From assembly GCA_945878135.1 (NCBI GenBank), contig CAMDUL010000010.1, positions 1 to 64,000 on the forward strand: a DNA stretch of 64,000 nucleotides. Reading direction: 5' to 3'. Below are positions 7,290-40,277 of this stretch, piece after piece (the first letter of the stretch is position 1; the number at the start of each line of letters is the position of its first letter). Both the position numbers and the translations under genes were made by a program. Below the pieces are notes generated by a model that was not told the origin of the DNA, did no database searches, and saw only the letters and a list, made by a program, of their open reading frames with translations. This DNA is from Chthoniobacter flavus (GTDB taxonomy: Bacteria > Verrucomicrobiota > Verrucomicrobiia > Chthoniobacterales > JACTMZ01).

Positions 7290-10145
7290 ATGAAAATAAA
7301 ATACCTCCTAGTGGCGGCAGCCGCATTGTTGGCTACCGCCTTGCACGGATTCGCCCATGGATCCATGGCCAATCCGGTCAGCCGTGTTTACCAGGTCTTC
7401 CTGGAAAATCCGGAAAACCCGTCGAGCGCAGCTGCCCGTGCGGCCGTAGGTGTGTCGGGACCCACGCCTTTCTACACGTGGAACGAAGTGGCCCGGCTTG
7501 CGCCGCAGCGCAACTACCGCGACCTCATTCCCGACGGCAAACTGGCCAGCGCGGGATTGTCCAAGTTTGCCGGCATCGATCTGGCGCGGTCCGATTGGCC
7601 GGCCACGCCGGTTCAGGCGGGGCCTTACGACTGCGTGTTCTATGCCACCGCGCCGCATCAGCCGAGCTCCTTCGCCGTGTACATCACCAAGCAGGGCTAC
7701 AATCCGGCACAACCGTTGCGTTGGGACCATCTCGAGCCGGTTTCCTACTCCGTGCCCCCGTATCTCGAGGGCCGCAATTTCAGGTTCACGGTGGATCTTC
7801 CCTCGCGCGCCGGGCGCCACGTGCTCTATGTCATCTGGCAACGCGATGATCCGGCCGGCGAAGCGTTCTTCTCCGCGAGCGACATCGATTTCGGCGGCGT
7901 CGACTACCCTTCGGCACCGGCGCCGAAAAAAGCGCCCATCGACGGCTACTGCGGCACGGGTTGCACCTGCGGCCACGAAATGCCGATGCCTCCGGCCGCT
8001 CCGACAGCTCCCGAGCCTCTGCCAACACCCGTGCCCGCGCCGCCCGCCGCATCCGCAGCGCTCGAGGTCACCCATGCCGTCACTTCTAGCTGGGGCAGCG
8101 GTGGCGAGGTGCTCGTCACCCTGCGCAATCCCGGCACGTCGGCCGTGAGTGATTGGAGCGTCGAGTTCGATTACCCGGCAGACATTTCCAGCCTGTGGAA
8201 TGCCAATCTGGCCAAGGGAAATTCCTCCCCGCGCTTCAAGGTGACTCCTCCCTCGTGGAGCAACACCATCGGCGCCGGGCAGAGCACGACATTCGGCTTC
8301 ATCTACGGTGGAGCCTCGAGCACCCCCGCGTTGCAAAACCTCGTGGTCAAGCCGTCCGCAGCCGGGACTCCGACCGCACCGGCTCCGCAGCCGACCCCCA
8401 CGCCGGCTCCGCAACCGACGCCGATCCCCGTGCCGACTCCCGCACCGCAACCCCAGGCACCGGTCGCCACTTCGCCCGATGCCGACTTCACGGTGAACGG
8501 TGTTCGCGTCGAGTTCCGCGTCGGTTCCGATTGGGGCAGCGGTCTCACCGCCAGCGTGCGCCTGGTCAACACTTCCTCCAAGCCGGTGGAGAACTGGACC
8601 GTGGCTATGGACCTTGCGACAACACCCGGCAGCACTTGGGATGCCGCGCATACCCGCAGTGCGGGACGATCGGAATTCCGCCCCGTCGGGTGGAACGCCA
8701 CCATCCCCGCCGGAGGCAGTGTGAGCTTCGGCTTCAGTGCCGCGCCCGGCAATTTGCGCATCCCGCCGGCCAATGTCACGGTCTCCGGAGCCGCTGCGCC
8801 GCAGCCGGTGCAGCCCGGTCCGCTGCCCTTGCCCGAGCCCGAGGTGGTTGCCCCGACACCGACCCCGACGCCGACCCCGACGCCGACCCCGACACCGACC
8901 CCGACCCCGACGCCTGCCATCGTCGCGCCGGTTGTCCCGGTCAACCCCGCGCCGGTCGCCGGCGGCAATCCGCCGCCGATCAACGGACCGAAAATCGTCG
9001 GCTACTTCGTCGAGTGGGGGATCTACGGCCGCAACTACAACGTGACCGATATTCCGGCGGACAAGCTCAACGTGATCAACTACGCCTTCGCCGACATCAG
9101 CCCGGCGGGCGAGGTGGTCATCTACGACCGCTGGGCCGCGGTGGAGAAAGCCTTCCCCGGTGATTCGTGGGACCAAATGCCGCGCGGCAACTACAACCAG
9201 CTGCGCAAGCTAAAGCAAAAGCACCCGCATTTGGTCACCATGATCTCGGTCGGTGGCTGGACGCTCTCCGGACGCTTCTCCGATGCGGCCCTGACAGCCG
9301 AGTCGCGCGAGCGCTTCGCCCGCTCCGCGGCCAAGTTCATCGTCGAGCACGGGTTCGACGGCGTGGACATCGACTGGGAATACCCGGTCGGCGGCGGACT
9401 CGAGTCGAACGTTTACCGTCCGGAGGACAAGCGCAACTACACGCTGTTGCTCCGCGAGCTGCGCCGTCAACTCGACGCGCGCGGTGTCCTCGACGGTCGC
9501 AAATACTACCTGTCCATCGCGTCGGGCGCGGGTGACGACAAGATCCGCAACCTCGAACCGGCCGGCATCGCCGAGGCCTGTGATTGGATTAACATCATGA
9601 CCTATGACTTTGCTGGCGGCTGGGAGAAAAAGACCGGTCATCAGGCCCCGATGTTTAGCCCCGAGGGACGTGGCGCGGCCAATCCTTCCACGCTGTGGAG
9701 CGTGGACGGTGCGGTGCGGCAGTTCCTCGACGCCGGGGTCGACCCGAAGAAGCTCGTTGTCGGCGTGCCGTTCTACGGGCGCGGATGGACCGGCGTGCCT
9801 TCGGCCAACAGCGGCATCGGCCAGCTGTCGACCGGTCTGCCCGCAGGTTCCTACGAAGCGGGGATCTACGACTACAAAGACCTTGTCGCCATGATCCAGG
9901 CCAAGCCCGATGTTTACCGCGTCTTCGAGGATACCAAGGCAGAGGCCGCCTTCCTCTCTGCTCCGTCGGCCAACGGTCTCTGGGTCTCGTTCGATGACAC
10001 GGCGATTGTGAAACGCAAGGTCGACTACATCAAAGGACTCGGCCTCGGCGGCGCCATGTTCTGGGAGCTGAGCGGCGACACCAAAGATCCGTCCACCTCG
10101 CTGCTCGAAGTCCTCTACCAAGGCTTCAAGCCGCAGCAGAACTGA
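7290..10145 (+). CDS. Multimodular chitin-degrading enzyme: AA10 LPMO-CBM2-CBM2-GH18
   Basis: This secreted 951-residue enzyme carries two catalytic domains. After a signal peptide (1-22) the mature chain begins with His23 (HGSMANPVSR), which with His123 (TAPHQPSS) forms the copper histidine brace of AA10 lytic polysaccharide monooxygenases; the closing AA10 strand is SASDIDF. A Cys-rich, Pro-rich linker follows. Two CBM2-like modules (about 258-355 and 398-505; motifs SSWGSGGEVLVTLRN and SDWGSGLTASVRLVN) should bind crystalline polysaccharide. A Pro-Thr linker joins a GH18 domain (about 570-945) with the motif DGVDIDWEYP, acid Glu697. The combination implies oxidative plus hydrolytic attack on chitin by one polypeptide. 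A strong terminator follows. Confidence 0.93.
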   Translation: MKIKYLLVAAAALLATALHGFAHGSMANPVSRVYQVFLENPENPSSAAARAAVGVSGPTPFYTWNEVARLAPQRNYRDLIPDGKLASAGLSKFAGIDLARSDWPATPVQAGPYDCVFYATAPHQPSSFAVYITKQGYNPAQPLRWDHLEPVSYSVPPYLEGRNFRFTVDLPSRAGRHVLYVIWQRDDPAGEAFFSASDIDFGGVDYPSAPAPKKAPIDGYCGTGCTCGHEMPMPPAAPTAPEPLPTPVPAPPAASAALEVTHAVTSSWGSGGEVLVTLRNPGTSAVSDWSVEFDYPADISSLWNANLAKGNSSPRFKVTPPSWSNTIGAGQSTTFGFIYGGASSTPALQNLVVKPSAAGTPTAPAPQPTPTPAPQPTPIPVPTPAPQPQAPVATSPDADFTVNGVRVEFRVGSDWGSGLTASVRLVNTSSKPVENWTVAMDLATTPGSTWDAAHTRSAGRSEFRPVGWNATIPAGGSVSFGFSAAPGNLRIPPANVTVSGAAAPQPVQPGPLPLPEPEVVAPTPTPTPTPTPTPTPTPTPTPAIVAPVVPVNPAPVAGGNPPPINGPKIVGYFVEWGIYGRNYNVTDIPADKLNVINYAFADISPAGEVVIYDRWAAVEKAFPGDSWDQMPRGNYNQLRKLKQKHPHLVTMISVGGWTLSGRFSDAALTAESRERFARSAAKFIVEHGFDGVDIDWEYPVGGGLESNVYRPEDKRNYTLLLRELRRQLDARGVLDGRKYYLSIASGAGDDKIRNLEPAGIAEACDWINIMTYDFAGGWEKKTGHQAPMFSPEGRGAANPSTLWSVDGAVRQFLDAGVDPKKLVVGVPFYGRGWTGVPSANSGIGQLSTGLPAGSYEAGIYDYKDLVAMIQAKPDVYRVFEDTKAEAAFLSAPSANGLWVSFDDTAIVKRKVDYIKGLGLGGAMFWELSGDTKDPSTSLLEVLYQGFKPQQN
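8853..8912 (+). repeat. Hexanucleotide tandem repeat coding the Pro-Thr linker
   Basis: Ten consecutive CCGACN units encode ten Pro-Thr dipeptides between the second CBM2 and GH18. The third-base variation (A, C, G) shows the array is not freshly expanded, but unit gain or loss would lengthen or shorten the linker in frame. Confidence 0.9.
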
Positions 10146-10259: not shown

Positions 10260-11990
10260 CTATCCCTCTTGCTCCGCGGCCTTGGTGTGCAGGATGTCGC
10301 CCAGCCACCAGCTGATGCCGCGTGCGGCCAACTCGGCCAGGGCGATGGGATGCTTTTCCAACTGACGCAGAACCTGCGCAGTGAAGTCCGTCTCGGGCTT
10401 CTTTTCCGTGCCCGAGACTTTGATCGAACACCAGTGGAGACCGTCCTCGCTGCGGGCAAACACGGTTTTGGTCGCTTCCGGCAACCACTTCAGGGCGGAC
10501 TCCGGCAATCCGGCCAAGATGGTTCCGGAAAGCGCGCCGGCGGGTGCGACGTGCAGCGACCCGCGCAGTCCCGCTTGTCCCGGGGCGAGGATGTCGATGT
10601 TTTCCACGTAAAGTCCGGTGTTGTCCTGTCGCCACGCGCAGGCGGCTTGGCTGAGATCCATTTCGGCGTAGTTGCGACTTTTGAAAAAGCGGTCGAGGAA
10701 GGCCTGGAAATGAAAGCCGGAAAGTTTCACGTCGTGCAACTGCAACGTCCCGCCGCCAGTGCCTTTGGCGATGTCCGTTCCGCGCCACGACCAGTCCACT
10801 GTGCCGCCGATCGATCCGCGCAGGCTGCCGACGATGTCCGGCGGCAAGTAGGTGCCGAGCGGAATGCCGCCGACTTGCAGGGCGAGAGTCGCTGCGGAGG
10901 TCCGCGTGTGCCATGAGCCGCGGCCGGAGGCGGTGATGCGGTCGCCGGCGCGGACCGCGAGGTCGCTTACCCGAATGACATCGCCCTCGAGCGCGTAGGT
11001 GATGGCGGCGTCGTTGATGGCCAACTTCTTGAAGGCGGGATCGCCCGAGCGGGCGGCGAGGTGGTCGAGATAATCCCAATCCTGCAATTCCCCACCCGCC
11101 AGCGAGACCGTGCCGCCGCCGGTGATGTTCTTTCCCGAAGTGTCGGTGGCGTAGTCCAGTGTGCCGCTCAGTTTTCCGGACAGAATCCTGGCCACATCCG
11201 AGGGAAGGAAGGGCACGATGTCGAGGTGGTCGATCTTGGCTGAGGCCTTGATGCTTTTGTCCGCATGCTGTCCGAGCCGCATGGCCAGTTGCAGATTGCT
11301 GCGCGGCGACTGTGGCTCGCGCAGGTAAATGTAACCGATGTCGATCATTTCGCGGGTCACGTAGACCTCCATGGCATCGACATCCATGGTCGGATAATCG
11401 GGATAAACAACGCGTCCGCCCTTGCCGAAGTATTTGAAGTTCTGCCCGATCATCCTCGCGCCGACACGCAGGTTTTCGCCCCGCACATTTTCCGAGCCCA
11501 AGGGCAGTTCGATGGTCATGTCCGGGCATTCGATCCACCCGCAACTGAATTGCGAGGGCATGAGGAAGGCATACCAAGGCTTCGGCGGGATCACCGGGTC
11601 CTGCGCCTTGAGCTTGTTGTCGGGATTGACCACCCGGAACTCCGCGCGGTCGATGTCGATGAGCGGCACGCGCCATTGGCCGCGGAGGACGCCCCGGGGA
11701 TCGAACCAACCGCGGGCCCGCGTGGTGTCGAGCGAACCGATGGCCTGCCCCGGCCAGCCCTTGCTGGTGAAGCTTTCCGCCATGACGCTGAGATCCGGTT
11801 GCAACTTCAACGGACCAAACTGTCCTTGCGCCTTGAGCGCGCGGGAAACGGTTTGGGAAAGCATCCGGTTGAAGTCCGGTCCCGCGACCCATGAGGACAA
11901 GATCCCCGGCAGATAATGTCGCGCGGCCAGAGTCGCGGTGGCGACCAGGAGGACCGCCGCTATCAGGATGAGGAGGATCTTGCGCAGCAC
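10260..11990 (-). CDS. AsmA-like membrane-anchored protein
   Basis: This protein of about 576 residues has a single N-terminal membrane helix (LRKILLILIAAVLLVATATL) followed by a long, mostly beta periplasmic region with repeated short strands, Gly-rich turns and a late AsmA-like segment (SGKLSGTLDYATDTSG, then GGGTLQLHDVKLSG). AsmA/TamB-type proteins bridge the periplasm and influence outer-membrane lipid or protein assembly. The assignment rests on architecture rather than a diagnostic motif. The start is uncertain: GTG at 11990 gives a clean anchor, while TTG at 12059 overlaps the upstream gene's stop (TTGA) and would add an unstructured basic leader. Confidence 0.65.
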   Translation of the reverse strand: MLRKILLILIAAVLLVATATLAARHYLPGILSSWVAGPDFNRMLSQTVSRALKAQGQFGPLKLQPDLSVMAESFTSKGWPGQAIGSLDTTRARGWFDPRGVLRGQWRVPLIDIDRAEFRVVNPDNKLKAQDPVIPPKPWYAFLMPSQFSCGWIECPDMTIELPLGSENVRGENLRVGARMIGQNFKYFGKGGRVVYPDYPTMDVDAMEVYVTREMIDIGYIYLREPQSPRSNLQLAMRLGQHADKSIKASAKIDHLDIVPFLPSDVARILSGKLSGTLDYATDTSGKNITGGGTVSLAGGELQDWDYLDHLAARSGDPAFKKLAINDAAITYALEGDVIRVSDLAVRAGDRITASGRGSWHTRTSAATLALQVGGIPLGTYLPPDIVGSLRGSIGGTVDWSWRGTDIAKGTGGGTLQLHDVKLSGFHFQAFLDRFFKSRNYAEMDLSQAACAWRQDNTGLYVENIDILAPGQAGLRGSLHVAPAGALSGTILAGLPESALKWLPEATKTVFARSEDGLHWCSIKVSGTEKKPETDFTAQVLRQLEKHPIALAELAARGISWWLGDILHTKAAEQEG

Positions 11991-12055
11991 CGCGCATAGC
12001 GTAGTGCCCGGCCGGACGCATCTCAACCCCACCGTCCGGCGAAGAGCCGGAGCGT

Positions 12056-12619
12056 TCAATCCGTCCGGCGCTTGAGGTCCGGATCGATGTTCCTTTTCGG
12101 CAGCAAGGCGCGCAATTGTGCGAGGGGGCCATGCGGGGCTCGGGGCGGGATGGTTCCCGCGGCGGCTCCGCCGACGCAGGTGTCGCCGCCCTGGCCTCGG
12201 GCGGCCTCGAGGGTGCTTTGCGCGCGGCGCAGGAGATCCTGCGGCGGACGGTGGTCATCCGGCACGGCCACGGCCACGCCGACCGAGACACGGTGGGCAT
12301 GGTCGTCATCGGCCGCGCGCATGGCATCGACGATCTGTTCGCCCACGCGCTTGGCGCCCGGCGGCGGCGTGGCGGGAAGAATGGCGATGAATTCATCGCT
12401 TGAGCGCCGGAGCACGACATCATTGGTGCGCGCGCAATGGACTTTCATCGCGCGCTCGAGGATCTCGAGGCCGGTCGCCGTCGGGGTCGTGTCGAAGGAG
12501 ACAAGGACCACGGCCAGCGGGCTGCTTTCGGCCGACCCCCGGTTCCACGCGCTCTGCAGCGCGGCGGTGACGCGCTCTCTGGCATCGAGGGCCGAGACGG
12601 ATGCGAAGAAAGAGGTCAT
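12056..12619 (-). CDS. Degenerate GGDEF-domain protein (SSDEF, RxxD kept)
   Basis: This 187-residue protein is essentially one GGDEF-fold domain. The signature loop reads RRSSDEFIAILPA, so the two active-site glycines are serines and cyclase activity is unlikely. Upstream, RTND sits exactly five residues before the loop, the position of the inhibitory c-di-GMP-binding I-site (RxxD). The substrate-side Asp segment is LVSFDTTPTATG. The C-terminus (PKRNIDPDLKRRTD) is basic. I infer a c-di-GMP receptor rather than a synthase. It is coupled to the AsmA-like gene and divergent from a kinase/REC-GGDEF operon. The start (MTSFFASVSAL) is chosen where GGDEF-like sequence begins. Confidence 0.7.
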   Translation of the reverse strand: MTSFFASVSALDARERVTAALQSAWNRGSAESSPLAVVLVSFDTTPTATGLEILERAMKVHCARTNDVVLRRSSDEFIAILPATPPPGAKRVGEQIVDAMRAADDDHAHRVSVGVAVAVPDDHRPPQDLLRRAQSTLEAARGQGGDTCVGGAAAGTIPPRAPHGPLAQLRALLPKRNIDPDLKRRTD

Positions 12620-12723
12620 GCAGGGACAATTTCGGGCCGCCGGAGGCTCCGCGCAAGCGGCAGATTCGGGAATCGACCGCTTTCCAGTTTGCCGCGGCAC
12701 TGGGTCGCGATTATTTTGAGGAC

Positions 12724-15213
12724 ATGAAGCCTGCTTCATTGCCGCCCGATGAAGCCGCGCGGCAGCTCGCTTTGGACGAGCTGCAACTCCTGGACACCCC
12801 CGTCGAGCAGGAGTTCGACGACATCACCCTGCTGGCGTCTTTCATCTGCGGCACTCCGATCGCGCTCATTTCCCTGATCGACCGTGAACGCCAATGGTTC
12901 AAGAGCCGCGTCGGCATCGACATCCCGGAAACACCGCGGGACATCGCCCTATGTGCGCACGCCATTCTCGGGGACGATATATTCGAGGTCACGGATGCGT
13001 CGCTCGACCAGCGGTTCAGCGACAACCCGGTGGTGACCGGCGATTTGCATTTGCGGTTTTACGCCGGGGTGCCGCTCAAGACTTCGGACAACCACAATGT
13101 CGGCACGCTTTGCGTCATCGATCGCGAGCCGCGCCGCCTGAGCGAGCCGCAGCGCGATGCACTCAAGGCGCTGGGGCGGCAGATCATGCGTCTGCTCGAG
13201 TTGCGCCAGGCCACCCGCCGGCAAACCGAGTTGCGCCAACAGCTGGTCTCCGAAACGGCGCTCAGCCGTGCCATCGTGGAGAACGCCGGCACGGCGATCA
13301 TTTCGACCGACCTGGACGGCACCATCCGGGCGTTCAATCCGGCGGCCGAGGAGTTGCTCGGTTACACCGCCGCGGAGATGGTCGGCAAGACCACGCCGGA
13401 GGTTTTCCATGATGCGGAGGAGGTGATGCGGCGCGGCGCGGAACTGTCGCGGCTTTACGGGGAGGAGGTCGGCGGCTTCCAGGTTTTCGTCCGCCCGCTC
13501 CGCGAAAACGCGATGTCGTCCGGGGAGTGGACCTACATCCGCAAGGACGGGCGGCGGGTGCCCGTCGCGCTGACCGTTTCCACGCTGCGCGACGAGGCGG
13601 GGGTGCCTTTCGGCTTTCTCGGGGTGGCCCGGGACCTGAGCGCGGCGAAGGCGCGTGACCGTCAGTTGGAAGCGGCCGCCCGCCTGCGCGACATCATCCG
13701 TCGCAGCCAGGAGGATTTCATCGCGCGGGGTCCGACCAACGAAATGTTCGACCACCTGCTCCGCGAAATCCTCGATTACACGCAAAGCGAATACGGGTTC
13801 ATCGGCGAGGTGCTGTACGACGAGAAGGGCGATCCCTATCTGCAGACCCATGCCATCACCAACATCGCGTGGAACGAGGCGACGAGGAAACTCTACGAGG
13901 ACAGCAAAATGACGGGGTTCATTTTCCGCAACCTGCACACGTTGTTCGGTGCGGCCTTGACCACCGGCGAGCCGGTCATTGCCAACCATCCGGCCACGGA
14001 CCCGCGCCGCGGTGGTCTCCCCAAGGGGCATCCCGCCATGCATGCCTTCCTCGGTCTCCCTTTCCGCTTCGGGGGGGAACTCGTCGGTATGGTCGGGGTG
14101 GCCAACCGGCCGGGCGGCTATGACGAGGAGTTTGTGCGCGAACTGGTTCCGCTGACCGCCTCATGCGCCGCGCTCATCCACGCCATGCGTTTGGACGCCG
14201 AAAGCTCCGCGGCCCGCGAGTCTCTGGCCAGGGAGCAGGACCGCTTCCGCCTGATCGTCGACACCGCGGCCGAGGCCTTTGTCGAGATCGACGAGGACGG
14301 GCGGGTGACCGAGTGGAACCAGCATGCGGCCGAGGATTTTCATGTCCCCGTGGCGGAGGCGGTCGGACGTCCGGTCGACGAACTCGTCACCTTGCGGAAC
14401 GAGGACGGAATGTCGTCCGGCCTGCGGGACCATTTGCCCCGCGAGCTGGAGCGTCCCGGGCAGGCGCGCGAATTCACCTTCGTGCGTGCCGACGGAACGC
14501 AGTTCCAAGGCGAACTGGTCATGTGGGCCATGCCGCAAGGGGAGTCCCGGCGTCATTGCGCTTTCATCCGCGATGTGACCGAGCGCCACGAATTGGTGAA
14601 GCAGCAGCGCCTGCGCTTCGAGTCCGAGACCCTGCTGAAGGAAATCCATCACCGGGTGAAAAACAACATGCAGGTCATCTCGAGCCTGCTCAGCATCCAG
14701 TCCGCGCAACTGAAGGATGCCGCGCAGCGCGATGTCTTCCTCGAGTGCCGGGAGCGCATCCGCGCCATGTCGCTCATCCACGACAAGCTCTACTCGGCCG
14801 GGCGCTACGAGGGGATCGACTTCGGCGACTACCTGCGCGAAATGGTCGCGCTGATCACTTCCTCGAACCGCCCGGGCGATGCCGAGGTGCGCACCGACCT
14901 GCAGGTCGAGCCGGTCGAAGTGCCCGTGGAGAAGGCGGTGCCGCTCTCGCTCATCGCCAGCGAACTCGTCCTCAACTCGCTCAAACACGCCTTCCGCGGA
15001 CGCCGCGGGGGGACGCTGACCGTGCGGCTGCACCGCGAGGACGGGACCTGCCGGCTATTTGTCGGCGATGACGGCCCCGGCATGCGACCGCCCGATCCGG
15101 ACCACGCGGGCGTGGGGCTGCAGCTCGTCGAGGGCTTGACCAAACAAATCAAAGGCCGCCGCGAAGTGTCGTCCGGCCCGGGCGTCGGCACGACGATCAT
15201 CTGGGAGCAATGA
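12724..15213 (+). CDS. GAF-PAS-GAF-PAS hybrid sensor histidine kinase (HisKA_2/HWE type)
   Basis: This cytoplasmic 829-residue kinase has no membrane helices. Domains in order are GAF (about 20-150), PAS (about 180-300), GAF (about 339-485), PAS (about 506-625), a HisKA_2 dimerisation domain with EIHHRVKNNMQV (phosphoacceptor His642 or 643) and an HATPase domain (N box ASELVLNSLKHAF; G boxes GDDGPGM and GVGLQLVEGL). The layout suggests sensing of light, redox or small ligands through GAF/PAS cofactors, but no chromophore Cys is obvious. Its stop overlaps the next gene (ATGA), a REC-GGDEF protein that is the likely phosphorylation partner. Confidence 0.92.
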   Translation: MKPASLPPDEAARQLALDELQLLDTPVEQEFDDITLLASFICGTPIALISLIDRERQWFKSRVGIDIPETPRDIALCAHAILGDDIFEVTDASLDQRFSDNPVVTGDLHLRFYAGVPLKTSDNHNVGTLCVIDREPRRLSEPQRDALKALGRQIMRLLELRQATRRQTELRQQLVSETALSRAIVENAGTAIISTDLDGTIRAFNPAAEELLGYTAAEMVGKTTPEVFHDAEEVMRRGAELSRLYGEEVGGFQVFVRPLRENAMSSGEWTYIRKDGRRVPVALTVSTLRDEAGVPFGFLGVARDLSAAKARDRQLEAAARLRDIIRRSQEDFIARGPTNEMFDHLLREILDYTQSEYGFIGEVLYDEKGDPYLQTHAITNIAWNEATRKLYEDSKMTGFIFRNLHTLFGAALTTGEPVIANHPATDPRRGGLPKGHPAMHAFLGLPFRFGGELVGMVGVANRPGGYDEEFVRELVPLTASCAALIHAMRLDAESSAARESLAREQDRFRLIVDTAAEAFVEIDEDGRVTEWNQHAAEDFHVPVAEAVGRPVDELVTLRNEDGMSSGLRDHLPRELERPGQAREFTFVRADGTQFQGELVMWAMPQGESRRHCAFIRDVTERHELVKQQRLRFESETLLKEIHHRVKNNMQVISSLLSIQSAQLKDAAQRDVFLECRERIRAMSLIHDKLYSAGRYEGIDFGDYLREMVALITSSNRPGDAEVRTDLQVEPVEVPVEKAVPLSLIASELVLNSLKHAFRGRRGGTLTVRLHREDGTCRLFVGDDGPGMRPPDPDHAGVGLQLVEGLTKQIKGRREVSSGPGVGTTIIWEQ

Positions 15214-16130
15214 GCACGTCCGGCCGACCCCGCATTCTCATCGTGGAGGACGAAGCCATCACCGCGATGGACTTGGCCGCCGAACTGCGCCGGCTTGGCT
15301 ACGACGTGTGCGGCACGGAGGACACGGCTGATGGGGCGGTTGCCGCGGTCGAGCGGGAAAAGCCCCGTCTCGTTCTTATGGATATCCGCCTCGGCGACAA
15401 CGGGGATGGCATTGGGGCCGCGCAGCGCATTGCCGACCGGCATGATGCTGCCGTGGTTTTTCTCACCGCGCATTCCGACGAGCAAACCTTGGCCCGCGCC
15501 CTGGCTGTTTCCCCCTACGGCTACATTGTAAAACCCTTCCGCGCGCGCGAACTGAAAGTGGCCGTGGAACTGGCCCTGAGCAAACACGCGGCCGAGCGGG
15601 CTGCGACGGAAAAAATGTCCGAACTGGTCCTGACCGATCCGCTGACCGGTCTGGCCAACCGGCGTCATTTCGACCAGATGCTGGCTTCCGAATGGGACCG
15701 TGCGGCGCGCGAAGAGCATCCGCTGGCCGTGATCATGATCGACATCGATCACTTCAAAGCCTTCAACGATTCGCGCGGTCACGCGGCCGGCGACGAGTGC
15801 CTCAAAGCGGTGGCCAAGGCCTTGCGCGGACATTGCACGCGCCCGGGCGACCTGGTCTGCCGCTGGGGCGGGGAGGAATTCGCCGTCGTTCTCCCCGGCA
15901 CAGATGCGGCCGGGGCCGCGCACTTGGCGCGCGAACTTGTCGAGGTTGTGCGGAATCTCGGCCTCGAGCATGGAAAATCCGGCGTGTCTCCCTGCATCAC
16001 CATCTCCGCCGGGTCGGCCTCCGCCGCGCCTTCCGACCAGGGATCCGCCGCCGCGCTGGTCGCAAAGGCCGATGCCGCGCTCTACGCGGCAAAGCAAGCC
16101 GGACGCAACCGCGCGCAAGCCGCAGATTAG
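15210..16130 (+). CDS. REC-GGDEF response regulator (diguanylate cyclase)
   Basis: This 306-residue protein has REC (acidic VEDEA, phosphoacceptor Asp58 in LVLMDIRLGD, Lys in YIVKPFRAREL) joined through a short helix to a GGDEF domain. The active loop is CRWGGEEFAVVLPG (GGEEF at 220-224), with the magnesium-binding IDIDHFKAFND, and an intact I-site RPGD five residues upstream. It should make cyclic-di-GMP from two GTP and be product-inhibited. The ATGA overlap with the upstream kinase makes a signal-dependent c-di-GMP output likely. Confidence 0.95.
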   Translation: MSTSGRPRILIVEDEAITAMDLAAELRRLGYDVCGTEDTADGAVAAVEREKPRLVLMDIRLGDNGDGIGAAQRIADRHDAAVVFLTAHSDEQTLARALAVSPYGYIVKPFRARELKVAVELALSKHAAERAATEKMSELVLTDPLTGLANRRHFDQMLASEWDRAAREEHPLAVIMIDIDHFKAFNDSRGHAAGDECLKAVAKALRGHCTRPGDLVCRWGGEEFAVVLPGTDAAGAAHLARELVEVVRNLGLEHGKSGVSPCITISAGSASAAPSDQGSAAALVAKADAALYAAKQAGRNRAQAAD

Positions 16131-16174: not shown

Positions 16175-16954
16175 TTATTCCAATGGTTCCAACGAGACCC
16201 AATCCACTGTCATGGTCTGCGGTTCGGACCAATCCGCATCCCCGGCCCAGGGCATTTGGCGCAGACCGAAAATGACCCGCGCGGGCCGGTCCGGCACAGC
16301 GTCCTCGATGGTGTGCTGGAGTACGCCGTCGATGAGAAAGCGCACTTCGATGTCGTCCCATTCGATGGTGTAGACGCGGAACCGGTCGTCCTGCAGCGAC
16401 ATCTTGTTTCCTTCGGCATCGCGGGCGGGTTGCTTGACCAGGGTCTCGGGCTCCGGGCGCCTTTGGTCCGCGTCGATCCAGGTGGCGAGGCGCAGATCGG
16501 TCCAACCGCCCTCGGGTCGCGTCCCGTGCCGCGGTGCGCGGCTTTCCGTGTCCGTCGCGGTGATCTCCAGGTCGATCTCATCGATGGTGTCCTGTTCCCG
16601 GTAGGTGAAGATCATGGCGGCGAGTCCGGGAACGGCCGTGTTCTTGGCGCGCATGCTGATGCGGTGTCCGGCACCGACCGGGCCGAAGGAAAGATTCTGG
16701 AACGGCCAAAAACGCCCGCGGCGCTGGCGACCTCTGAGGAAGTCGCGTTCGGCCGTGAGGTAGGCGTAACCGTCGCCGGGGATGAGTTCGGACCAACCTG
16801 TGACCGGCGACAGCTCGGCGCGGTAATCCCAGACGAAGCCGCGCCGATCCTCCGGTTTTCCCGCGGTATCGAATCCCTCGAAGTATTCCTGGGCGAGAAC
16901 CGGGGACACGAGCAATCCGGAGCCGATCAGAAGCGAGAGGCCCCGGTTAAGCAT
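16175..16954 (-). CDS. Secreted GH16-family glycoside hydrolase/lyase-like protein
   Basis: This protein of about 259 residues has a signal peptide (MLNRGLSLLIGSGLLVSPVLAQ). It carries the GH16 catalytic motif EIDLE (nucleophile and acid/base Glu around the Asp) in DTIDEIDLEIT, with flanking GH16 strands AMIFTYREQ and YTIEWDDIEVRFLIDG. GH16 enzymes cut beta-1,3/1,4-glucans, galactans and carrageenans, or transglycosylate. As the last gene of the exopolysaccharide operon, and overlapping the dehydrogenase gene by 8 nt, it may trim or release the polymer. The start was chosen for the signal peptide. Confidence 0.83.
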   Translation of the reverse strand: MLNRGLSLLIGSGLLVSPVLAQEYFEGFDTAGKPEDRRGFVWDYRAELSPVTGWSELIPGDGYAYLTAERDFLRGRQRRGRFWPFQNLSFGPVGAGHRISMRAKNTAVPGLAAMIFTYREQDTIDEIDLEITATDTESRAPRHGTRPEGGWTDLRLATWIDADQRRPEPETLVKQPARDAEGNKMSLQDDRFRVYTIEWDDIEVRFLIDGVLQHTIEDAVPDRPARVIFGLRQMPWAGDADWSEPQTMTVDWVSLEPLE

Positions 16955-18248
16955 CCACGATCTTCGCGGTGCGATTCCGCGGAACGACATGACAGGTGTC
17001 GACGATCAGGGGCACATGGTCGGCCAGTTCATCGTATTTCACGCCGCGGTGCGGGGTGCAGACCACCGCGGCGTCGAAGGTCTTCAACTCATGGTCGCTC
17101 CACGGGATGGAATGCCGGCCCGACCAGTGATTGCGGCCCGGAGCGATGCGCGGCACGTGCGGGTCATAATACTCGACATCCGCACCCTTGGCCGCAAGCA
17201 GATCCATGATGTCGTAAGAAGGGGACCCGCGGTCGTCGGATACACCCGGCTTGTAGGCCAATCCGAGGACGAGCACGCGGGCCCCGTGCAGGGCGCGTCC
17301 CGCGGAATTCAAGGCCTCGAGAAGATGGTTGACCGCGTAGTAGGGCATCGAACGGTTGATCTGTCCGGCCAATTCGATGAACCGCGTGTCGTAGTGGTAT
17401 TCCTTGGCTTTCCACGTGAGGTAATAAGGGTCAATGGGGATGCAATGCCCGCCCACGCCGGGTCCGGGGTAGAAGGGCATGAAGCCGAAAGGTTTGGTCT
17501 TCGCCGCGTCGATGACCTCCCAGATGTCGATGCCCATGGACGAGTAGATACGCTTCAGTTCGTTGACCAGGGCGATGTTGATGAAGCGGAAGATGTTTTC
17601 GGTCAGTTTGACCGCTTCGGCCGTGTCGCAGTCCTTGACCGGGACGAGGTGCTTGATCACGCGGCCGTAGAGTTCCTCGCCGCGTTCGAGGCAGGCGGGG
17701 GTGAGTCCGCCGATGACCTTCGGCATGTCACCGAGCACACTCTGGTGGTTGCCCGGATCTTCCCGCTCGGGGGAGAACACCAGCGCGAAATCCACGCCGG
17801 CTCTCAGTCCGGATCCCTTCTCCAGCACGGCGAGCAATTCCTCGCGGGTCGTGCCGGGGTAGGTGCTGGACTCGAGCGAGACGAGCATGCCGCGCCTGAG
17901 ATGCGGGGCCACTTGCGCCCCCGCGTCGAGGATGTGCGAGAGGTCGGGATCGTGGTGGCGTCGCAACGGCGTCGGCACGCAAATGATGACCGCGGCGGCC
18001 TCGGAGAGACGGTCATGGTCGGCGTTGAAGTCGAGATGGCCCGAGGCGAGGCACGCTTTGATCCGTGAGGACGGGAGATGGGCCAGCGGCGAGTGGCCTT
18101 GTTGCAATTCGAGCAGGCGCCCCTCGTCGGCATCGCTGCCGAGCACGCGGCAGCCGGCCTCGGCGAAGCCCAAGGCGAGCGGGATGCCGACGTAGCCGAG
18201 CCCGACAACGGCCACGTCGTAACGGGCATTTTCCGGTTTGCCGATCAT
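16947..18248 (-). CDS. UDP-glucose/UDP-HexNAc 6-dehydrogenase family protein
   Basis: This 433-residue enzyme has the NAD Rossmann motif VVGLGYVGIPLALGFAEAG, the central ESSTYPGTT segment, and the catalytic cysteine in PGVGGHCIPIDPYYL. The EREDPGN and KLTENIFRFINIALVNEL segments match the WbpA/WecC branch that oxidises UDP-N-acetylhexosamines to uronic acids rather than UDP-glucose, but substrate cannot be fixed by eye. It would supply an acidic nucleotide sugar to the adjacent GT2 synthase; the two genes overlap ATGA. Confidence 0.92.
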   Translation of the reverse strand: MIGKPENARYDVAVVGLGYVGIPLALGFAEAGCRVLGSDADEGRLLELQQGHSPLAHLPSSRIKACLASGHLDFNADHDRLSEAAAVIICVPTPLRRHHDPDLSHILDAGAQVAPHLRRGMLVSLESSTYPGTTREELLAVLEKGSGLRAGVDFALVFSPEREDPGNHQSVLGDMPKVIGGLTPACLERGEELYGRVIKHLVPVKDCDTAEAVKLTENIFRFINIALVNELKRIYSSMGIDIWEVIDAAKTKPFGFMPFYPGPGVGGHCIPIDPYYLTWKAKEYHYDTRFIELAGQINRSMPYYAVNHLLEALNSAGRALHGARVLVLGLAYKPGVSDDRGSPSYDIMDLLAAKGADVEYYDPHVPRIAPGRNHWSGRHSIPWSDHELKTFDAAVVCTPHRGVKYDELADHVPLIVDTCHVVPRNRTAKIVDA

Positions 18249-19660
18249 GAGACGGCGGCGGCGGGGGTGAGTCTCTCCATTTTGGCGCCGAGATCCCGAC
18301 GGCGCAGAAACACGTATTGGAAAGTCCCGACGAGGGAGCAGAGGAGGCGGAATTGGTGGAAGCCGAGCTGATCGAGAAAGATCGCGCCGATCATTTTCCA
18401 GAACTCGCCCCATGACGCGGTGCGCCAGCGCGAGGACTCATTGATCAAGACGGCCAGCAAGGTGAGGAAAACACCCGTGATGTAAGCAAGGAAAAGAAGG
18501 ACAAGAACCTGCTTCCCCGTGGCGAGTCCGGCGATCAGGAGGACGATGGCCAGGGTGTAGGCGAGCAATTCCACGAGCGGGGCGAGGGCTTCGAAGAAGA
18601 GAAAGAACGGGAGCCCGAAGATTCCGGTCATCCCGTAGCGCGGGTTGAAGAGCATGCGCCAGTGGCGGAAGATCGACTGGAGGGTGCCGCGTTGCCAGCG
18701 GTTGCGCTGCGAAGCGTATTGACCCCAGCTCTCCGGCACCTCGGTGTAGCACACCGCGTCCGGGGTGAAAGCGAGCGCGTGGTGGCGTCCGTTGCGCCGG
18801 TCGTAGATGTGCCCGTTGAGCCGGATGGCGAATTCCATGTCGTCGGTGATCGATTGCGGCCAGGGTCCGCCCGCGGCCTCGAAGACGCTTTTCTTGACGA
18901 GAAGCAGCGCACCGGAAATGCAGAGCATGCTTCGCAAGCGGCTCAAGCCGGTGCGGGCCCAATGGAAGCTGCGCGCGTATTCGATCTCCTGGTTTAGACC
19001 GAGCATGGTGCGGGGCAAGCCGCGGCGGGTGATGGTGCCGTTTTCCACGGTGAGGCCGTTGGAAGGACGGACCACGCCGGCCGAGGCGGCCAGCCGCGAC
19101 TCGACGAGGAAGGGCCGCGCCATGTGGAGGAGACCGTCGGGCTCGAGGACGCAGTCGGCATCGATCACGCAGAGGAGCGGATAGCGGGCGAGGCCCGATC
19201 CGGCATTGATGGCGTCCGCCCGGCGACCGTTTTCCTTGGCCGCCACCACCAGGTTCGGGAAGGTCTCGCTTTCATAAATGGCGTTCACTTGCTTCGTGCC
19301 GATGCGCTTGCGCGCCTGCTTGTCCACCCGGCGCAAGCCGAAGCGGCGTTGGAGCACGCCGATGGTGTCGTCGGTCGAGCCGTCGTCGACCACGATAACC
19401 TCGTGGGCGGGGTAGTTCAGCTTGAGAGCGTTCTCCACCGTGCCGACGATGATGTCCGCTTCGTTGTGTCCGGGGATAATGACCGACACCGGCATGGACA
19501 GCTCCGATTTGGAAATCCGGTCGAACTCCGCGAAGGTAACCGCGCTCTTGTAGCGTCGCACTTGGGCCGCGCCGAGAAAGACGAGGAGGAAATAGACGAG
19601 GTGCAGGGCGACGAAATAAATGAGGATGCCCCAAAGAAGGATGTGGACGATGTTGATCAT
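18245..19660 (-). CDS. Processive GT2 polysaccharide synthase
   Basis: This 471-residue protein has an N-terminal membrane helix (VHILLWGILIYFVALHLVYF), a cytoplasmic GT-A domain (VSVIIPGHNEAD, VVDDGSTDD, VIDADCV, base TDD in SITDDMEF, and the processivity motif QRNRW), then about four C-terminal membrane helices. The layout matches PgaC/HAS/Alg8-type synthases that polymerise and export a chain across the inner membrane. There is no PilZ domain. Both ends overlap neighbours by ATGA, so it is the centre of the operon. The product sugar is unknown; the neighbouring dehydrogenase suggests uronic acid content. Confidence 0.92.
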   Translation of the reverse strand: MINIVHILLWGILIYFVALHLVYFLLVFLGAAQVRRYKSAVTFAEFDRISKSELSMPVSVIIPGHNEADIIVGTVENALKLNYPAHEVIVVDDGSTDDTIGVLQRRFGLRRVDKQARKRIGTKQVNAIYESETFPNLVVAAKENGRRADAINAGSGLARYPLLCVIDADCVLEPDGLLHMARPFLVESRLAASAGVVRPSNGLTVENGTITRRGLPRTMLGLNQEIEYARSFHWARTGLSRLRSMLCISGALLLVKKSVFEAAGGPWPQSITDDMEFAIRLNGHIYDRRNGRHHALAFTPDAVCYTEVPESWGQYASQRNRWQRGTLQSIFRHWRMLFNPRYGMTGIFGLPFFLFFEALAPLVELLAYTLAIVLLIAGLATGKQVLVLLFLAYITGVFLTLLAVLINESSRWRTASWGEFWKMIGAIFLDQLGFHQFRLLCSLVGTFQYVFLRRRDLGAKMERLTPAAAVS

Positions 19661-20748
19661 AAAGCGGCCTCCCGGGCCGCGAGGGCCCCGTTTTCCTCGA
19701 GAATCTGACGGCTCATCTCGCGCGCGAAGCGGTCCGGGCTGCCGGTCATGGCCACGGTCAAAGCCTCGCGTCCTTCCGTCCCCAGATTCCAGAGCGCCTG
19801 CGCAGCGGAGAATCGCACCCACCAGGAGCTGTCCCGCAGGGCATCGCTCAGCAGACCGGCATGCTTGACGGACCGCATCCGGCCGAGGGACTGCATGACA
19901 ACATTGCGCACTTCCCAGGCAGGATCGCCGGCCAAGCGGGCCACGGCTTCGGCGGTGCCGTGGTCTCCGATCAGTCCGAGGGAACGAACCGCATTGAGGC
20001 GGACGCGGAAGTCAGAGCGTCCGAGCAGCGCGGTGATCGGTTCGACCGCTTCGTCGATGCGCAGGAGACCAAGAACGCGCACGGCCACATCGACCGCGCT
20101 GTCCGAGTAGGTCCCGTCTTCGTTTTCGAGAATCTCGAGCAGCGGGTCGGCGGCGGACGGACCGAAGAGGACAAGGACCTCGGCCACGCGGCGCTGGTTC
20201 ATTTCACCCGGCAAATCGAAAGCGAGCATGATGTTGCGGATGGTGCGGTTTTCCCCGAGTGCGGCGAGCGAGCGGGCGGCGGCGAAGCGGACAGCGAGCA
20301 CGGGGTCTTGCAGTGCGTCGAGGAGGGCCGGCACGGAAACCCCATCGCCGAGGTAGCCGAGTCGGCCGGCCGCTTGCAACCGGCGCTCCCAACGGCGGTT
20401 GTGCAGGGCGGCAGACTCCTTGGTCCGCAAGGGCAGGGAAGTGAAAAGAGTTTCCAATGGCGCGCGCTCGGCCGGCGGGAGGCGGTCCGAGATCTCCATG
20501 AGCAGATTGAGGGCGAGCGCAGGTTGCTCCTGCAGAATGGGCAGGGCCTTGGCCGCGTTGTCGCGTCCGGCCAGAAACGCGTGCACTGCCGGTTCGGCCC
20601 GGCGGCGGAACCGCTGGGTGCGGAGGGTTTCGGCCTGGGCGGCGAGGCGCACCAGCACGATGACGCCAAGGACGACCGCGCTCATGGCGGCGAGCACGAG
20701 AGCGATGTCGAAGGCAGTGCGCAGAAAGTCTGGTCCTAAAATGTCCAT
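19657..20748 (-). CDS. Membrane-anchored HEAT-repeat protein
   Basis: This protein of about 363 residues has one N-terminal membrane helix (FDIALVLAAMSAVVLGVIVLVRLAA), a helical region, then five or six HEAT-like repeats (for example VSVPALLDALQDPVLAVRFAA, VEPITALLGRSDFRVRLNAVRS and LSDALRDSSWWVRFSAAQALWN). The repeats form a solenoid that binds proteins. Lying between the GT2 synthase and the outer-membrane barrel, with overlapping ends, it may be the periplasmic or cytoplasmic scaffold connecting them. This role is inference. The start is set at MDILGPDF, inside the barrel gene's 3' end. Confidence 0.82.
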   Translation of the reverse strand: MDILGPDFLRTAFDIALVLAAMSAVVLGVIVLVRLAAQAETLRTQRFRRRAEPAVHAFLAGRDNAAKALPILQEQPALALNLLMEISDRLPPAERAPLETLFTSLPLRTKESAALHNRRWERRLQAAGRLGYLGDGVSVPALLDALQDPVLAVRFAAARSLAALGENRTIRNIMLAFDLPGEMNQRRVAEVLVLFGPSAADPLLEILENEDGTYSDSAVDVAVRVLGLLRIDEAVEPITALLGRSDFRVRLNAVRSLGLIGDHGTAEAVARLAGDPAWEVRNVVMQSLGRMRSVKHAGLLSDALRDSSWWVRFSAAQALWNLGTEGREALTVAMTGSPDRFAREMSRQILEENGALAAREAAL

Positions 20749-21617
20749 ACGGCTCCTATTGTCGGGGCCCACTGTTGGTAGAGCTCACCGGAGTTGTTTT
20801 CGCGCAGGCGGTAGACGTATTGCAGGCCGGCCACGAGGGCGAAGTCCGGCGTGATGGGCTGCCGGTAGAAGAGCGAGCCGATCCATGCGTTGGAAAGACT
20901 GGTCGCGCCGCTGCCGAACTCCAGATCCGGATCGGTGCCGTAGGCCAGGCCGACGGTCAGGCGTCCGCCGCCCGGCATATTCCAGAAATTCATGCTGCCG
21001 GCGTAGTAATTGTAGTTGTCGTCGTTGAACGCCCAGCCGTGCGCGTAGCGGAAGGTGAAAAATATGTCGTCGTTGAACCACCAGGAGAATCCGGGTTTGA
21101 TCTGCTCGATTGACCCCTCGCCGAGCGGGGCGACGCTGGCGAAGTTCAGCTGCGTGTAGTCGAAGAGGAGAAGCAGGCGCGGGGCGACTTGGTATTCCAG
21201 TCCGCCGGAATAGATCTGGTTGGGCGAAAACTGCGGGTCCGCAGAGAAGGACAGTTTGGTGTGCACTTCGAGGTATTTGACCGGATACCAGGAGGCGATG
21301 GCGCTGTAGAGAATGTCGGTGCCCGAAGGAGGGCGCTGCAGGATGTCGATGCCGGTCCCGATGATGAGGTTGGGGTACGGCTGGTAGAGGACCTCGGTGT
21401 AGATTTGCTGCCAGGCGCTGCGTCCGTCGTTGAATCCGGTGATGGTGTAAAGAGGCACGATGGTCCACCGTCGGAACGGTTTCCCTTCCCGCACTTCGAC
21501 CGCCTGCTCCAAGATCACCTCTTGGTTGAGCAGGGCGGCAGCGTCGTTCATCTGACCGGATGCGGTCGTCAGGACGCCGGAAGCAAGAAGGAGCAGCGCG
21601 GCCGTGGGGGCTCTCAT
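20736..21617 (-). CDS. YaiO-like outer-membrane beta-barrel protein
   Basis: This 293-residue protein has a signal peptide ending TTASGQ and then a run of alternating aromatic/polar strands typical of an outer-membrane barrel (RWTIVPLYTITGFNDGRSAW, IYSGGLEYQVAPRLLLLFDY, FFTFRYAHGWAFNDDNYNYY), ending in a C-terminal aromatic (GAVWTF). YaiO-type barrels are found beside GT2 synthases such as E. coli YaiP. In this operon it is the best candidate for the polymer exit pore; no TPR module is fused to it. It overlaps the epimerase stop (ATGA). Confidence 0.8.
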   Translation of the reverse strand: MRAPTAALLLLASGVLTTASGQMNDAAALLNQEVILEQAVEVREGKPFRRWTIVPLYTITGFNDGRSAWQQIYTEVLYQPYPNLIIGTGIDILQRPPSGTDILYSAIASWYPVKYLEVHTKLSFSADPQFSPNQIYSGGLEYQVAPRLLLLFDYTQLNFASVAPLGEGSIEQIKPGFSWWFNDDIFFTFRYAHGWAFNDDNYNYYAGSMNFWNMPGGGRLTVGLAYGTDPDLEFGSGATSLSNAWIGSLFYRQPITPDFALVAGLQYVYRLRENNSGELYQQWAPTIGAVWTF

Positions 21618-22600
21618 GCGGCCCGCCTTTCCGAAGTCTCGCGGGCGCACCCGAGCAGATCGTCGATTGTTTGCTCGAGGTTCCAGTGCGGACGGAACCC
21701 GGTGAGTGCTTCCAATCTTTCCGTCACCGGATGGCGCTGCGTGATCTGGTCGAATTGCGCGCCGTAAGCTTGGGCAAAAGGTACGAACTCGATTTCCGAG
21801 CGGCTGCCGGTGCGTTCGATGACCATGCGGGCAAGGTCGACGATGCGCGTCTCGCGATCGTTGCCGACATTGACCGGCTGTCCGGCCGCGGCCGCATTGC
21901 CTGCGAGGAGGTCGATGGCTGCGATAGTGTCGCGCACGTCGCAGAAGGAACGGGTCTGCGTCCCGTCACCGAAGACGGTGAGCGGTTCGCCGGCCAAGGC
22001 CTGCTTGATGAAACGCGGCAGGACGAACCCGTAATTGGGCGACTGGCGGGGTCCCACCGCATTGAAAAGACGGGGGATGGTCACCTGCAGACCGTGCTCC
22101 TGGCGGTAGGCCATGGCTTGGATTTCATTGCTCAGCTTGCTCAGGGCGTAGCCGGTCAGTCCGCCTTCCCGCGGCAGGTAGACCAATTCGTCATCTTCCC
22201 GCAGGTCCCGGCTGCGGCTGTGGCTGTAGACCGAGGAGCTCGAGGCAATGACCACCTGCGGGCGGTGCGCACACGTGGCGATTGTTTCGAGCAACCGTTC
22301 GGTTGCGCAGACATTCACTTGCGTCACGCGCACCGGTTCGCGCAGCACGCGAAACATGCCGACCACGGCGGCCAGATGGTAGACGCGGTCCGCGGCCTCC
22401 GCCGCTCCGGCCAATCCCTCCCAGTCCATGAGATCCGCCTCGACGAGACAAAAGCGGGCATTGCTCTCGAAGGCGGCGATGTTGTCCCGGTGGCCCGTGC
22501 TCAGATCATCGATGGCCGTGACATGGTCCCCCCGGTTCAAATGTTTCTCGACGACGTGGGACCCGATGAAGCCGGCGCCGCCGGTGACCAAGATATTCAT
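21614..22600 (-). CDS. NAD-dependent nucleotide-sugar epimerase/dehydratase
   Basis: This extended short-chain dehydrogenase of 328 residues has the NAD motif VTGGAGFIGSH, the Ser segment ASSSSVYSHS and the catalytic GYALSK (YxxxK). The C-terminal half has the family's PRLFNAVGPRQ and FCDVRD motifs. Members act as UDP-glucose/GlcNAc 4-epimerases or UDP-glucuronate decarboxylases; the exact reaction is not resolvable here. It is the first gene of the six-gene minus-strand exopolysaccharide operon. The 219 bp upstream holds no gene and probably carries the operon promoter. Confidence 0.9.
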   Translation of the reverse strand: MNILVTGGAGFIGSHVVEKHLNRGDHVTAIDDLSTGHRDNIAAFESNARFCLVEADLMDWEGLAGAAEAADRVYHLAAVVGMFRVLREPVRVTQVNVCATERLLETIATCAHRPQVVIASSSSVYSHSRSRDLREDDELVYLPREGGLTGYALSKLSNEIQAMAYRQEHGLQVTIPRLFNAVGPRQSPNYGFVLPRFIKQALAGEPLTVFGDGTQTRSFCDVRDTIAAIDLLAGNAAAAGQPVNVGNDRETRIVDLARMVIERTGSRSEIEFVPFAQAYGAQFDQITQRHPVTERLEALTGFRPHWNLEQTIDDLLGCARETSERRAA

Positions 22601-22819: not shown

Positions 22820-23494
22820 TCAGCGTTTGGCGGGTGCGCCGGCGCCCGGTGCGCGTGCCGCCTCCGTGTTTTCTTCCGCGATCCGGCGGGTTTGCATGGC
22901 GAGGAGGTAGGAATCGTAGCGGGGGCGGATAAAAACCCACTCCCACCAGCGCTCGAGTGAACTTGCGCGTTCGATCCCGTTGCCCCAGTTGTTGAGTACC
23001 CACCACTCGTTCCCCTCGGGCACAGCCAGCACGGAATGCCGCGTGCGGCCGCCGTCCTGCGGCACATCGGCCAGGGCGACGAATGTCCGGCTCGCGCTGA
23101 ATCCGGATTGCTCGAGGCGGTGCTTTTTGGTCAGCGCATAATCTTCGCAGTCGCCGTAGCGCGCCGGTCTCATCCCGGCCACGAGTGGGTGCCGCACGGG
23201 CGGTTCGGTCACAGGCCGGTCGAACACGCCGTAATTGGCCCTGTCGGACAGATAGCGGATGTCGCGATTGACCGCACTGTTCACCCGGCGTAGGAGTCGC
23301 CACTCCTCCCGGGTCAGGCGGGGGAAGGTTGCCTTGCCCAGGTGGTCGACTTGCGCGGCATTGACCAGTCCCCGGTAGTCTGCAGTCCGTCCTTTCGGTT
23401 GAATGTAAGTGCCCGCCGGCGCGTCGGCCGAAGGAAGGCGGCAAGCAACCAGCGAAGCGACTGCCGCGAGACAGGAAATGGCAAATGCTTTCAT
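22820..23494 (-). CDS. LapG-like transglutaminase-type cysteine peptidase lipoprotein
   Basis: This 224-residue protein begins with a lipoprotein signal ending in the lipobox LVAC, so it is probably anchored to a periplasmic membrane face. The core has the bacterial transglutaminase-like cysteine-protease (BTLCP/LapG) motifs: Cys in YGDCEDYALTKK, His in RHSVLAV, and LNNWG where LapG has an Asp-containing LDN. LapG cleaves large adhesins under c-di-GMP control in other bacteria. Here no LapD or LapA homologue is visible nearby, but it lies upstream of the exopolysaccharide operon on the same strand. The Asn replacing Asp may alter catalysis. Confidence 0.75.
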   Translation of the reverse strand: MKAFAISCLAAVASLVACRLPSADAPAGTYIQPKGRTADYRGLVNAAQVDHLGKATFPRLTREEWRLLRRVNSAVNRDIRYLSDRANYGVFDRPVTEPPVRHPLVAGMRPARYGDCEDYALTKKHRLEQSGFSASRTFVALADVPQDGGRTRHSVLAVPEGNEWWVLNNWGNGIERASSLERWWEWVFIRPRYDSYLLAMQTRRIAEENTEAARAPGAGAPAKR

Positions 23495-38808: not shown

Positions 38809-38817
38809 ATTTGGAAT

Positions 38818-40272: not shown

Positions 40273-40277
40273 GATGC

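What the first reader, a model, noticed from the sequence alone, without database searches (positions are those of the whole stretch)
12056..12619. GGDEF protein with catalytic loop SSDEF but intact RxxD: probable c-di-GMP receptor
RTND lies five residues before SSDEF, the exact I-site spacing. Loss of the loop glycines with a kept I-site is the pattern of known GGDEF-type effectors. It is coupled to an AsmA-like envelope protein and faces a kinase/REC-GGDEF operon that has an active-type GGEEF. The pair could connect c-di-GMP to envelope assembly.
Basis: partly seen in the sequence, partly recalled or inferred. Interest (0 to 1): 0.52.

Follow-up and report, generated by a model that had tools for sequence, protein, structure and literature searches.

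The report
Dead signal-making enzyme kept as receptor
A small bacterial protein that looks like a broken maker of the signal molecule c-di-GMP has probably been kept as a sensor of that molecule; this is a known kind of protein, here in a little-studied group of bacteria.

Summary
Minus-strand ORF 12056-12619 (187 aa) is a GGDEF domain (Pfam 49 bits) with RTND exactly five residues before SSDEF. It is dead beyond the loop: the metal-binding Asp and the P-loop/alpha-1 segment are gone. Six degenerate GGDEFs of this Chthoniobacterales genus form one clade; all six keep RxxD while their loops decayed differently, and the genus's four other degenerate GGDEFs lack RxxD. The stand-alone genes are under purifying selection. 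This supports a c-di-GMP receptor using the I-site core, like PopA, PelD, CdgA and BcsE. Binding is untested, and two auxiliary I-site arginines (PleD R390, R313) are missing.

The AsmA part fails: the AsmA-like gene adjoins this gene only in the window, and two clade genomes lack a clear ortholog. What is conserved (3 of 3 stand-alone orthologs at this locus) is divergent pairing with a PAS/GAF kinase and an active REC-GGDEF cyclase, beside a polysaccharide cluster in 2 of 3. Against the reading: in G007 no other GGDEF was found. Verdict: probable effector, ordinary in kind; a feedback subunit acting in trans on the cyclase is the bolder reading.

The parts
12056..12619 (-). stand-alone degenerate GGDEF protein, 187 aa, start ATG 12619
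   Evidence: Pfam PF00990 49.1 bits; orthologs 72% and 66% identical in G005 and G003, which begin near the same place; Ka/Ks 0.22-0.35
12419..12430 (-). I-site core R64-T-N-D67 (RxxD)
   Evidence: kept 6 of 6 in the clade, with synonymous codon changes at Arg (CGC/CGG/CGT/AGA)
12389..12403 (-). degenerate catalytic loop S73-S-D-E-F77
   Evidence: SSDEF, ASDEF, SSDEF, SNERI, ATARF, GATRL in the six relatives
12059..12154 (-). C-terminal tail (residues 156-187), low-confidence helix, net positive; a tail of this kind is shared by the six degenerate proteins and absent from the neighbouring active cyclases
   Evidence: alignments A2 and A3; amphipathic in 4 of 6 but not in the window protein; pLDDT about 50
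12620..12723 (.). 104 bp divergent intergenic stretch; no sigma-70-like promoter found
12724..15213 (+). PAS/GAF HisKA_2 sensor kinase, divergent partner
   Evidence: Pfam; 78% identical orthologs beside the G005 and G003 genes
15210..16130 (+). REC-GGDEF response regulator with GGEEF, intact metal/substrate motifs and RPGD: probable active diguanylate cyclase, WspR-like
   Evidence: Pfam GGDEF 173.7 bits, Response_reg 72.1; WspR is the best solved relative
10260..12059 (-). AsmA-like protein (N-terminal helix, then beta-rich), adjacent here only; not counted as part of the conserved unit
   Evidence: Pfam AsmA below cut-off; AF2 pLDDT 61, no Foldseek match at E<=0.001; adjacency not conserved
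16175..22600 (-). polysaccharide-type cluster: GH16, UDP-sugar dehydrogenase, GT2, HEAT-repeat, unknown, epimerase; convergent with the cyclase gene
   Evidence: Pfam; same order beside the module in G003

Best explanation
A former REC-GGDEF diguanylate cyclase copy lost its receiver and its active site and was kept as a small c-di-GMP receptor. Proposed working: the PAS/GAF kinase senses a cue and phosphorylates the REC-GGDEF cyclase (inferred from domains); the cyclase makes c-di-GMP (inferred from intact motifs); c-di-GMP binds the RxxD core of the divergently encoded GGDEF* protein (inferred from lineage conservation); the bound form then docks, perhaps through its C-terminal tail, on a target in surface-polysaccharide or envelope work (weakest step, from gene neighbourhoods only). 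Shown: fold, dead active site, kept RxxD in a clade, purifying selection, conserved divergent pairing.
For: Dead by several motifs, not only the loop: Ser at the PleD D327 place, ten columns of P-loop/alpha-1 missing, Ala at the D344 place, S73-S74 for both loop glycines (residue roles from PMC12943098). BcsE and PelD are described with the same P-loop and alpha-1 loss, and both sense c-di-GMP through the I-site motif (PMC7439463). RxxD kept 6 of 6 in the clade against 0 of 4 other degenerate GGDEFs of the genus (Fisher p 0.005, rows not independent). Clade support 95/95. Purifying selection, Ka/Ks 0.22-0.35. AF2 model is a GGDEF fold, best match WspR Z 21.0, rmsd 3.7, 153 aligned. Divergent pairing with kinase and active cyclase in 3 of 3 stand-alone orthologs at this locus. 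PilZ 0 of 11 and c-di-GMP-I riboswitch 0 of 11 genomes of the genus, so a non-PilZ receptor is wanted.
Against: No binding data. The PleD R390 place is Gln95 here (positively charged in 1 of 6) and the R313 place is Ala30 (Arg in 0 of 6), so only the RxxD core and an R/H at position 91 remain. G007 (88% complete) has no second GGDEF match, so in that genome no cyclase was seen to feed the receptor. The pairing is not obligatory: kinase without the GGDEF* in G008, GGDEF* without the kinase in G004, G007 and G009. MshEN domains in 11 of 11 genomes are other candidate receptors. Selection is weaker than on the cyclase (Ka/Ks 0.09-0.17).
Confidence: 0.6

Rival explanations
1. Trans-acting subunit of the neighbouring cyclase: the GGDEF* protein pairs with the REC-GGDEF domain, either blocking the productive homodimer or lending its I-site so that c-di-GMP dimers lock the pair shut. 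It would set the feedback set-point of its cognate cyclase rather than act on an envelope target.
For: Divergent pairing 3 of 3; the clade lies near the cyclase's own clade in the tree, weakly supported; E. coli CdgI, a degenerate GGDEF protein, shows strong two-hybrid contacts with several other GGDEF domains, and heteromers are proposed to compete with homodimers (PMC5635695, passages).
Against: Three of six clade members have no such kinase/cyclase neighbour, and G007 has no other GGDEF match. The R313-type arginine used in cross-linking is absent in 6 of 6.
Confidence: 0.2
2. A relic or pure protein scaffold: the domain no longer binds any nucleotide and persists only as a folded docking piece, RxxD being left over or structural.
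For: RxxD is common in GGDEF domains (58 of 64 GG-loops, biased sample); auxiliary I-site arginines lost; weaker purifying selection than its neighbours.
Against: RxxD survives in 6 of 6 while the loop diverges, and is lost in 4 of 4 other degenerate domains of the genus, so it is not needed for the fold; Arg64 is encoded by four different codons across the six.
Confidence: 0.15
3. One reading: an AsmA-coupled receptor linking c-di-GMP to envelope assembly.
For: Same strand, overlapping or about 65 bp apart in the window; in G008 an AsmA-like gene overlaps a GAF-GGDEF*-EAL gene by 8 bp.
Against: Adjacent in 1 of 4 genomes holding both genes; G007 and G009 carry the GGDEF* clade without a clear AsmA ortholog; a GC-rich hairpin can be read between the two genes in the window (sequence printed, not scored; no terminator-like site found there).
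Confidence: 0.05

Closest known systems
CdgA (Bd3125) of Bdellovibrio bacteriovorus
   Same: degenerate loop (GVNEF) with RxxD five residues upstream; no cyclase activity; binds c-di-GMP, Kd about 2 uM (PMC3271064, passages)
   Different: sequence kinship not tested here; polar, predation role
BcsE REC*-GGDEF* of E. coli
   Same: dead receiver plus dead GGDEF, P-loop and alpha-1 missing, RxxD binding, C-terminal tail unresolved (PMC7439463, section 8); the G007 and G009 relatives have the REC*-GGDEF* layout
   Different: the window protein has no receiver; BcsE uses a His 30 residues after the Arg, here Glu94 stands at that distance; sequence kinship not tested
PelD
   Same: dead GGDEF with RxxD tied to polysaccharide synthesis (PMC10333796, passages)
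   Different: PelD is 3xTM-GAF-GGDEF*; the window protein is GGDEF* alone
PopA of Caulobacter
   Same: RxxD receptor derived from a REC-GGDEF cyclase (PMC10333796, passages)
   Different: two receivers, cell-cycle role, alphaproteobacterial lineage
WspR
   Same: among the closest solved relatives of the GGDEF* and the closest of its neighbour cyclase
   Different: WspR is an active cyclase (recalled)

Membership tests
GGDEF domain (PF00990) | score over the curated cut-off, and the fold | tested here: met
   49.1 bits against 23.8; model pLDDT 81.7, WspR Z 21.0
active diguanylate cyclase | GG[DE]EF loop | tested here: not met
   SSDEF
active diguanylate cyclase | metal-binding Asp (PleD D327) and substrate residues F331, N335, D344 | tested here: not met
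   Ser at the D327 place, segment deleted, Ala at the D344 place in alignment A2; residue list from PMC12943098
degenerate-GGDEF c-di-GMP receptor | dead active site with RxxD five residues before the loop | tested here: met
degenerate-GGDEF c-di-GMP receptor | RxxD kept across relatives | tested here: met
   6 of 6
degenerate-GGDEF c-di-GMP receptor | third and fourth I-site residues as in PleD (R390, R313) | tested here: not met
   Q95 and A30 by alignment with WspR; roles from PMC7288161. Not required of every member: BcsE binds with a His instead
degenerate-GGDEF c-di-GMP receptor | measured c-di-GMP binding, lost on R-to-A change | not testable with these tools
   needs protein
PelD | GAF domain before GGDEF* | tested here: not met
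   only GGDEF-type matches in 187 aa
BcsE or PopA | receiver domain(s) before GGDEF* | tested here: not met
   none in the window protein; one receiver, with the phospho-acceptor Asp replaced by Asn or Ser, in G009 and G007
AsmA family (neighbour gene) | PF05170 over cut-off, or fold match | tested here: inconclusive
   12.3 against 29.8 bits; beta-rich low-confidence model, no Foldseek match at E<=0.001

The most novel reading that the evidence does not exclude
A detachable I-site: a dead, single-domain GGDEF protein encoded back-to-back with a kinase/cyclase pair that supplies product feedback in trans, c-di-GMP locking it onto the cyclase (or onto a surface-polysaccharide machine) in bacteria that have no PilZ proteins.
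Probability: 0.12. Interest if true: 0.6.

Novelty: new member of a known kind. Interest (0 to 1): 0.4.

Why it matters
If it binds, it is a c-di-GMP receptor in Verrucomicrobiota from a genus with cyclases but no PilZ protein, where what reads the signal is open apart from MshEN-type ATPases. The relatives suggest steps of the path from enzyme to receptor: active REC-GGDEF, REC*-GGDEF*, stand-alone GGDEF*. No paper on such a protein in this group turned up (Verrucomicrobi + c-di-GMP + GGDEF; 15 of 16 papers listed, judged by title and start of abstract) or (Chthoniobacter + cyclic di-GMP; 0 papers).

Tried and rejected
AsmA coupling: rejected on synteny. Active cyclase with an odd loop, as in VCA0965 or ECA3270: rejected because the metal Asp and P-loop segment are missing too. 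Pseudogene: rejected on Ka/Ks. Membrane-anchoring amphipathic tail: left open; 4 of 6 tails beat their own shuffles at p<0.05, the window's (p 0.55) and G005's (p 0.28) do not. Members beyond the genus: none found; the profile finds 6 members at E<=5.1e-79, then active cyclases from 4.5e-33, in 213 genomes of the order, at most 15 candidates scored per genome. The structure search for the AsmA-like protein was uninformative. BcsE and PelD chains were not among the listed structural matches, which excludes nothing.

Slips: read some minus-strand loci in the wrong orientation or place; one search replaced for the genus table. Two rows (G053, G123) were unreadable and one (G194) was not used, so the tree holds 6 of the out-of-genus hits. 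The G005 rows of the AsmA Ka/Ks were out of frame and are not used; G005 AsmA identity is. One of 25 genus GGDEF hits (G006:C94) covers only the C-terminal end and was left out of the 24 counted. The first gene calls included antisense ORFs; one search replaced them.

Full report
WHAT IS THERE. The minus-strand ORF 12056-12619 encodes 187 residues. It matches Pfam GGDEF with 49.1 bits (cut-off 23.8) over residues 61-145, and GGDEF_2 weakly. The start at 12619 is preferred: orthologs begin near the same place and the upstream extension to 12739 has no counterpart in them.

IS IT DEAD. The loop alone would be weak evidence: AGDEF and SGDEF cyclases can be active (PMC3974145, passages). Alignment with the neighbouring active cyclase (A2) shows more: the D327-type Asp is Ser, ten columns covering F331, K332 and N335 are missing, and the D344 place is Ala (residue roles from PMC12943098, passages). 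The AF2 model keeps the GGDEF sheet and helices (pLDDT 81.7); the best solved match is WspR (Z 21.0, rmsd 3.7, 153 aligned).

RELATIVES. In the order (213 genomes, 11 of them of the genus) a profile finds six members at E<=5.1e-79, all in the genus; everything else begins at 4.5e-33 with active cyclases. Three are stand-alone and sit divergently to the same kinase/REC-GGDEF pair (window, G005, G003). One is stand-alone elsewhere (G004). Two (G009, G007) are fused to a receiver whose phospho-acceptor Asp is Asn or Ser, and follow an M23 peptidase gene on the same strand by 92 and 59 bp (families; gaps from the ORF coordinates). The six form one clade, 95/95, with a long branch for G004. G005's contig equals by length and match JAFMJK010000072.1, a Chthoniobacterales MAG, which places the genus.

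THE I-SITE. Of 25 GGDEF matches in the genus, 24 show the loop region (the six clade members read separately in the same call). Fourteen have GG[DE]E-type loops; 9 of these have RxxD at exact spacing. Ten are degenerate: the six clade members keep RxxD (6 of 6) with loops SSDEF, ASDEF, SSDEF, SNERI, ATARF, GATRL; the other four (three in GGDEF-EAL proteins by their place beside EAL hits; one other) do not (0 of 4). Fisher p is 0.005 for 6/6 against 0/4, and 0.26 against the active set; rows are related, so these are guides only. Arg64 is written CGC, CGG, CGT and AGA across the six, so the residue and not the DNA is held. Against: the PleD R390 place is Gln in five and Arg in one, and the R313 place is never Arg (alignments; roles from PMC7288161, passages). 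Position 91, one helical turn from the R390 place, is Arg or His in all six. BcsE binds with RxxD plus a His (PMC7439463, section 8), so the loss is not fatal to the reading.

SELECTION. Ka/Ks between the three stand-alone orthologs is 0.22-0.35; for the cyclase 0.09-0.17, for the kinase 0.12-0.14. The gene is functional but less constrained than its neighbours.

NEIGHBOURHOOD. AsmA-like orthologs (E<=1e-150) occur in 9 of 11 genomes of the genus, the GGDEF* clade in 6 of 11; both in four, adjacent in one, the window. In G005 the AsmA-like gene lies beyond the cyclase and faces it; in G003 and G004 it is elsewhere. So it is not a conserved partner. The kinase is found in 4 of 11: three with the GGDEF*, one (G008) without. 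Next to the cyclase in the window and in G003 is a polysaccharide-type cluster: GH16, UDP-sugar dehydrogenase, GT2, HEAT repeats, epimerase.

THE SIGNAL IN THIS GENUS. PilZ 0 of 11 (control rings in 5 of 14). EAL 3 of 11. HD-GYP-type HD_5 2 of 11, the window's genome among them. MshEN 11 of 11. c-di-GMP-I riboswitch 0 of 11 at E<=0.01, though its control rang in only 1 of 14. The window's genome has three GGDEF domains with intact loops besides the GGDEF*. G007 shows no GGDEF but its REC*-GGDEF* (88% complete).

HOW IT MOST LIKELY WORKS. Shown: fold, dead active site, retained RxxD in a clade, purifying selection, conserved divergent pairing. Inferred: c-di-GMP binding, supply by the neighbouring cyclase, output on surface polysaccharide or on the cyclase itself. 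Confidence in receptor function is 0.6. CdgI of E. coli, a degenerate GGDEF protein with contacts to several GGDEF domains (PMC5635695, passages), makes the trans-feedback rival reasonable at 0.2.

NOVELTY. The kind is known (PopA, PelD, CdgA, SgmT, BcsE; passages or sections read). The lineage, its single-domain form and its host group look new as far as the paper searches show; these cover open-licence full texts only and were read as listings apart from the papers named.

Noticed in passing
22820-23494 (-): Peptidase_C93 (BTLCP; recalled as the family of LapG) near the polysaccharide cluster, in a genome where no EAL domain, hence no LapD, was found. A 61% identical gene lies about 1 kb from the G004 member of the GGDEF* clade.
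   Followed up: partly
L055:6145-10216 (G008): An AsmA-like gene overlaps by 8 bp a gene for a GAF-degenerate GGDEF-EAL protein: a second, different neighbourhood of AsmA-like and c-di-GMP-type genes.
   Followed up: partly
L053 (G000:C50, 6357 bp): A small contig of the same assembly carries a second copy of the ALDH, LytTR-type regulator, kinase, chitinase-like and AsmA-like genes at 80-98% protein identity: strain variant, duplication or contaminant.
   Followed up: no
L047:6734-7771 and L048:5850-6857: REC-GGDEF proteins in which both domains look dead (no phospho-acceptor Asp, no GGDEF loop) but RxxD is kept, in line after an M23 peptidase gene: BcsE-like layout.
   Followed up: partly
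38128-41603 (-): PAS-GGDEF (GGDEL, RxxD one residue out of register), HisKA_3 kinase and LuxR-type regulator side by side; the same GGDEL type recurs in G003, G004 and elsewhere in this genome.
   Followed up: no
7290-10145 (+): 951-residue secreted-looking protein with chitinase-like and carbohydrate-binding-looking parts and a Pro-Thr repeat linker; labelled from reading the translation, no family search made.
   Followed up: no
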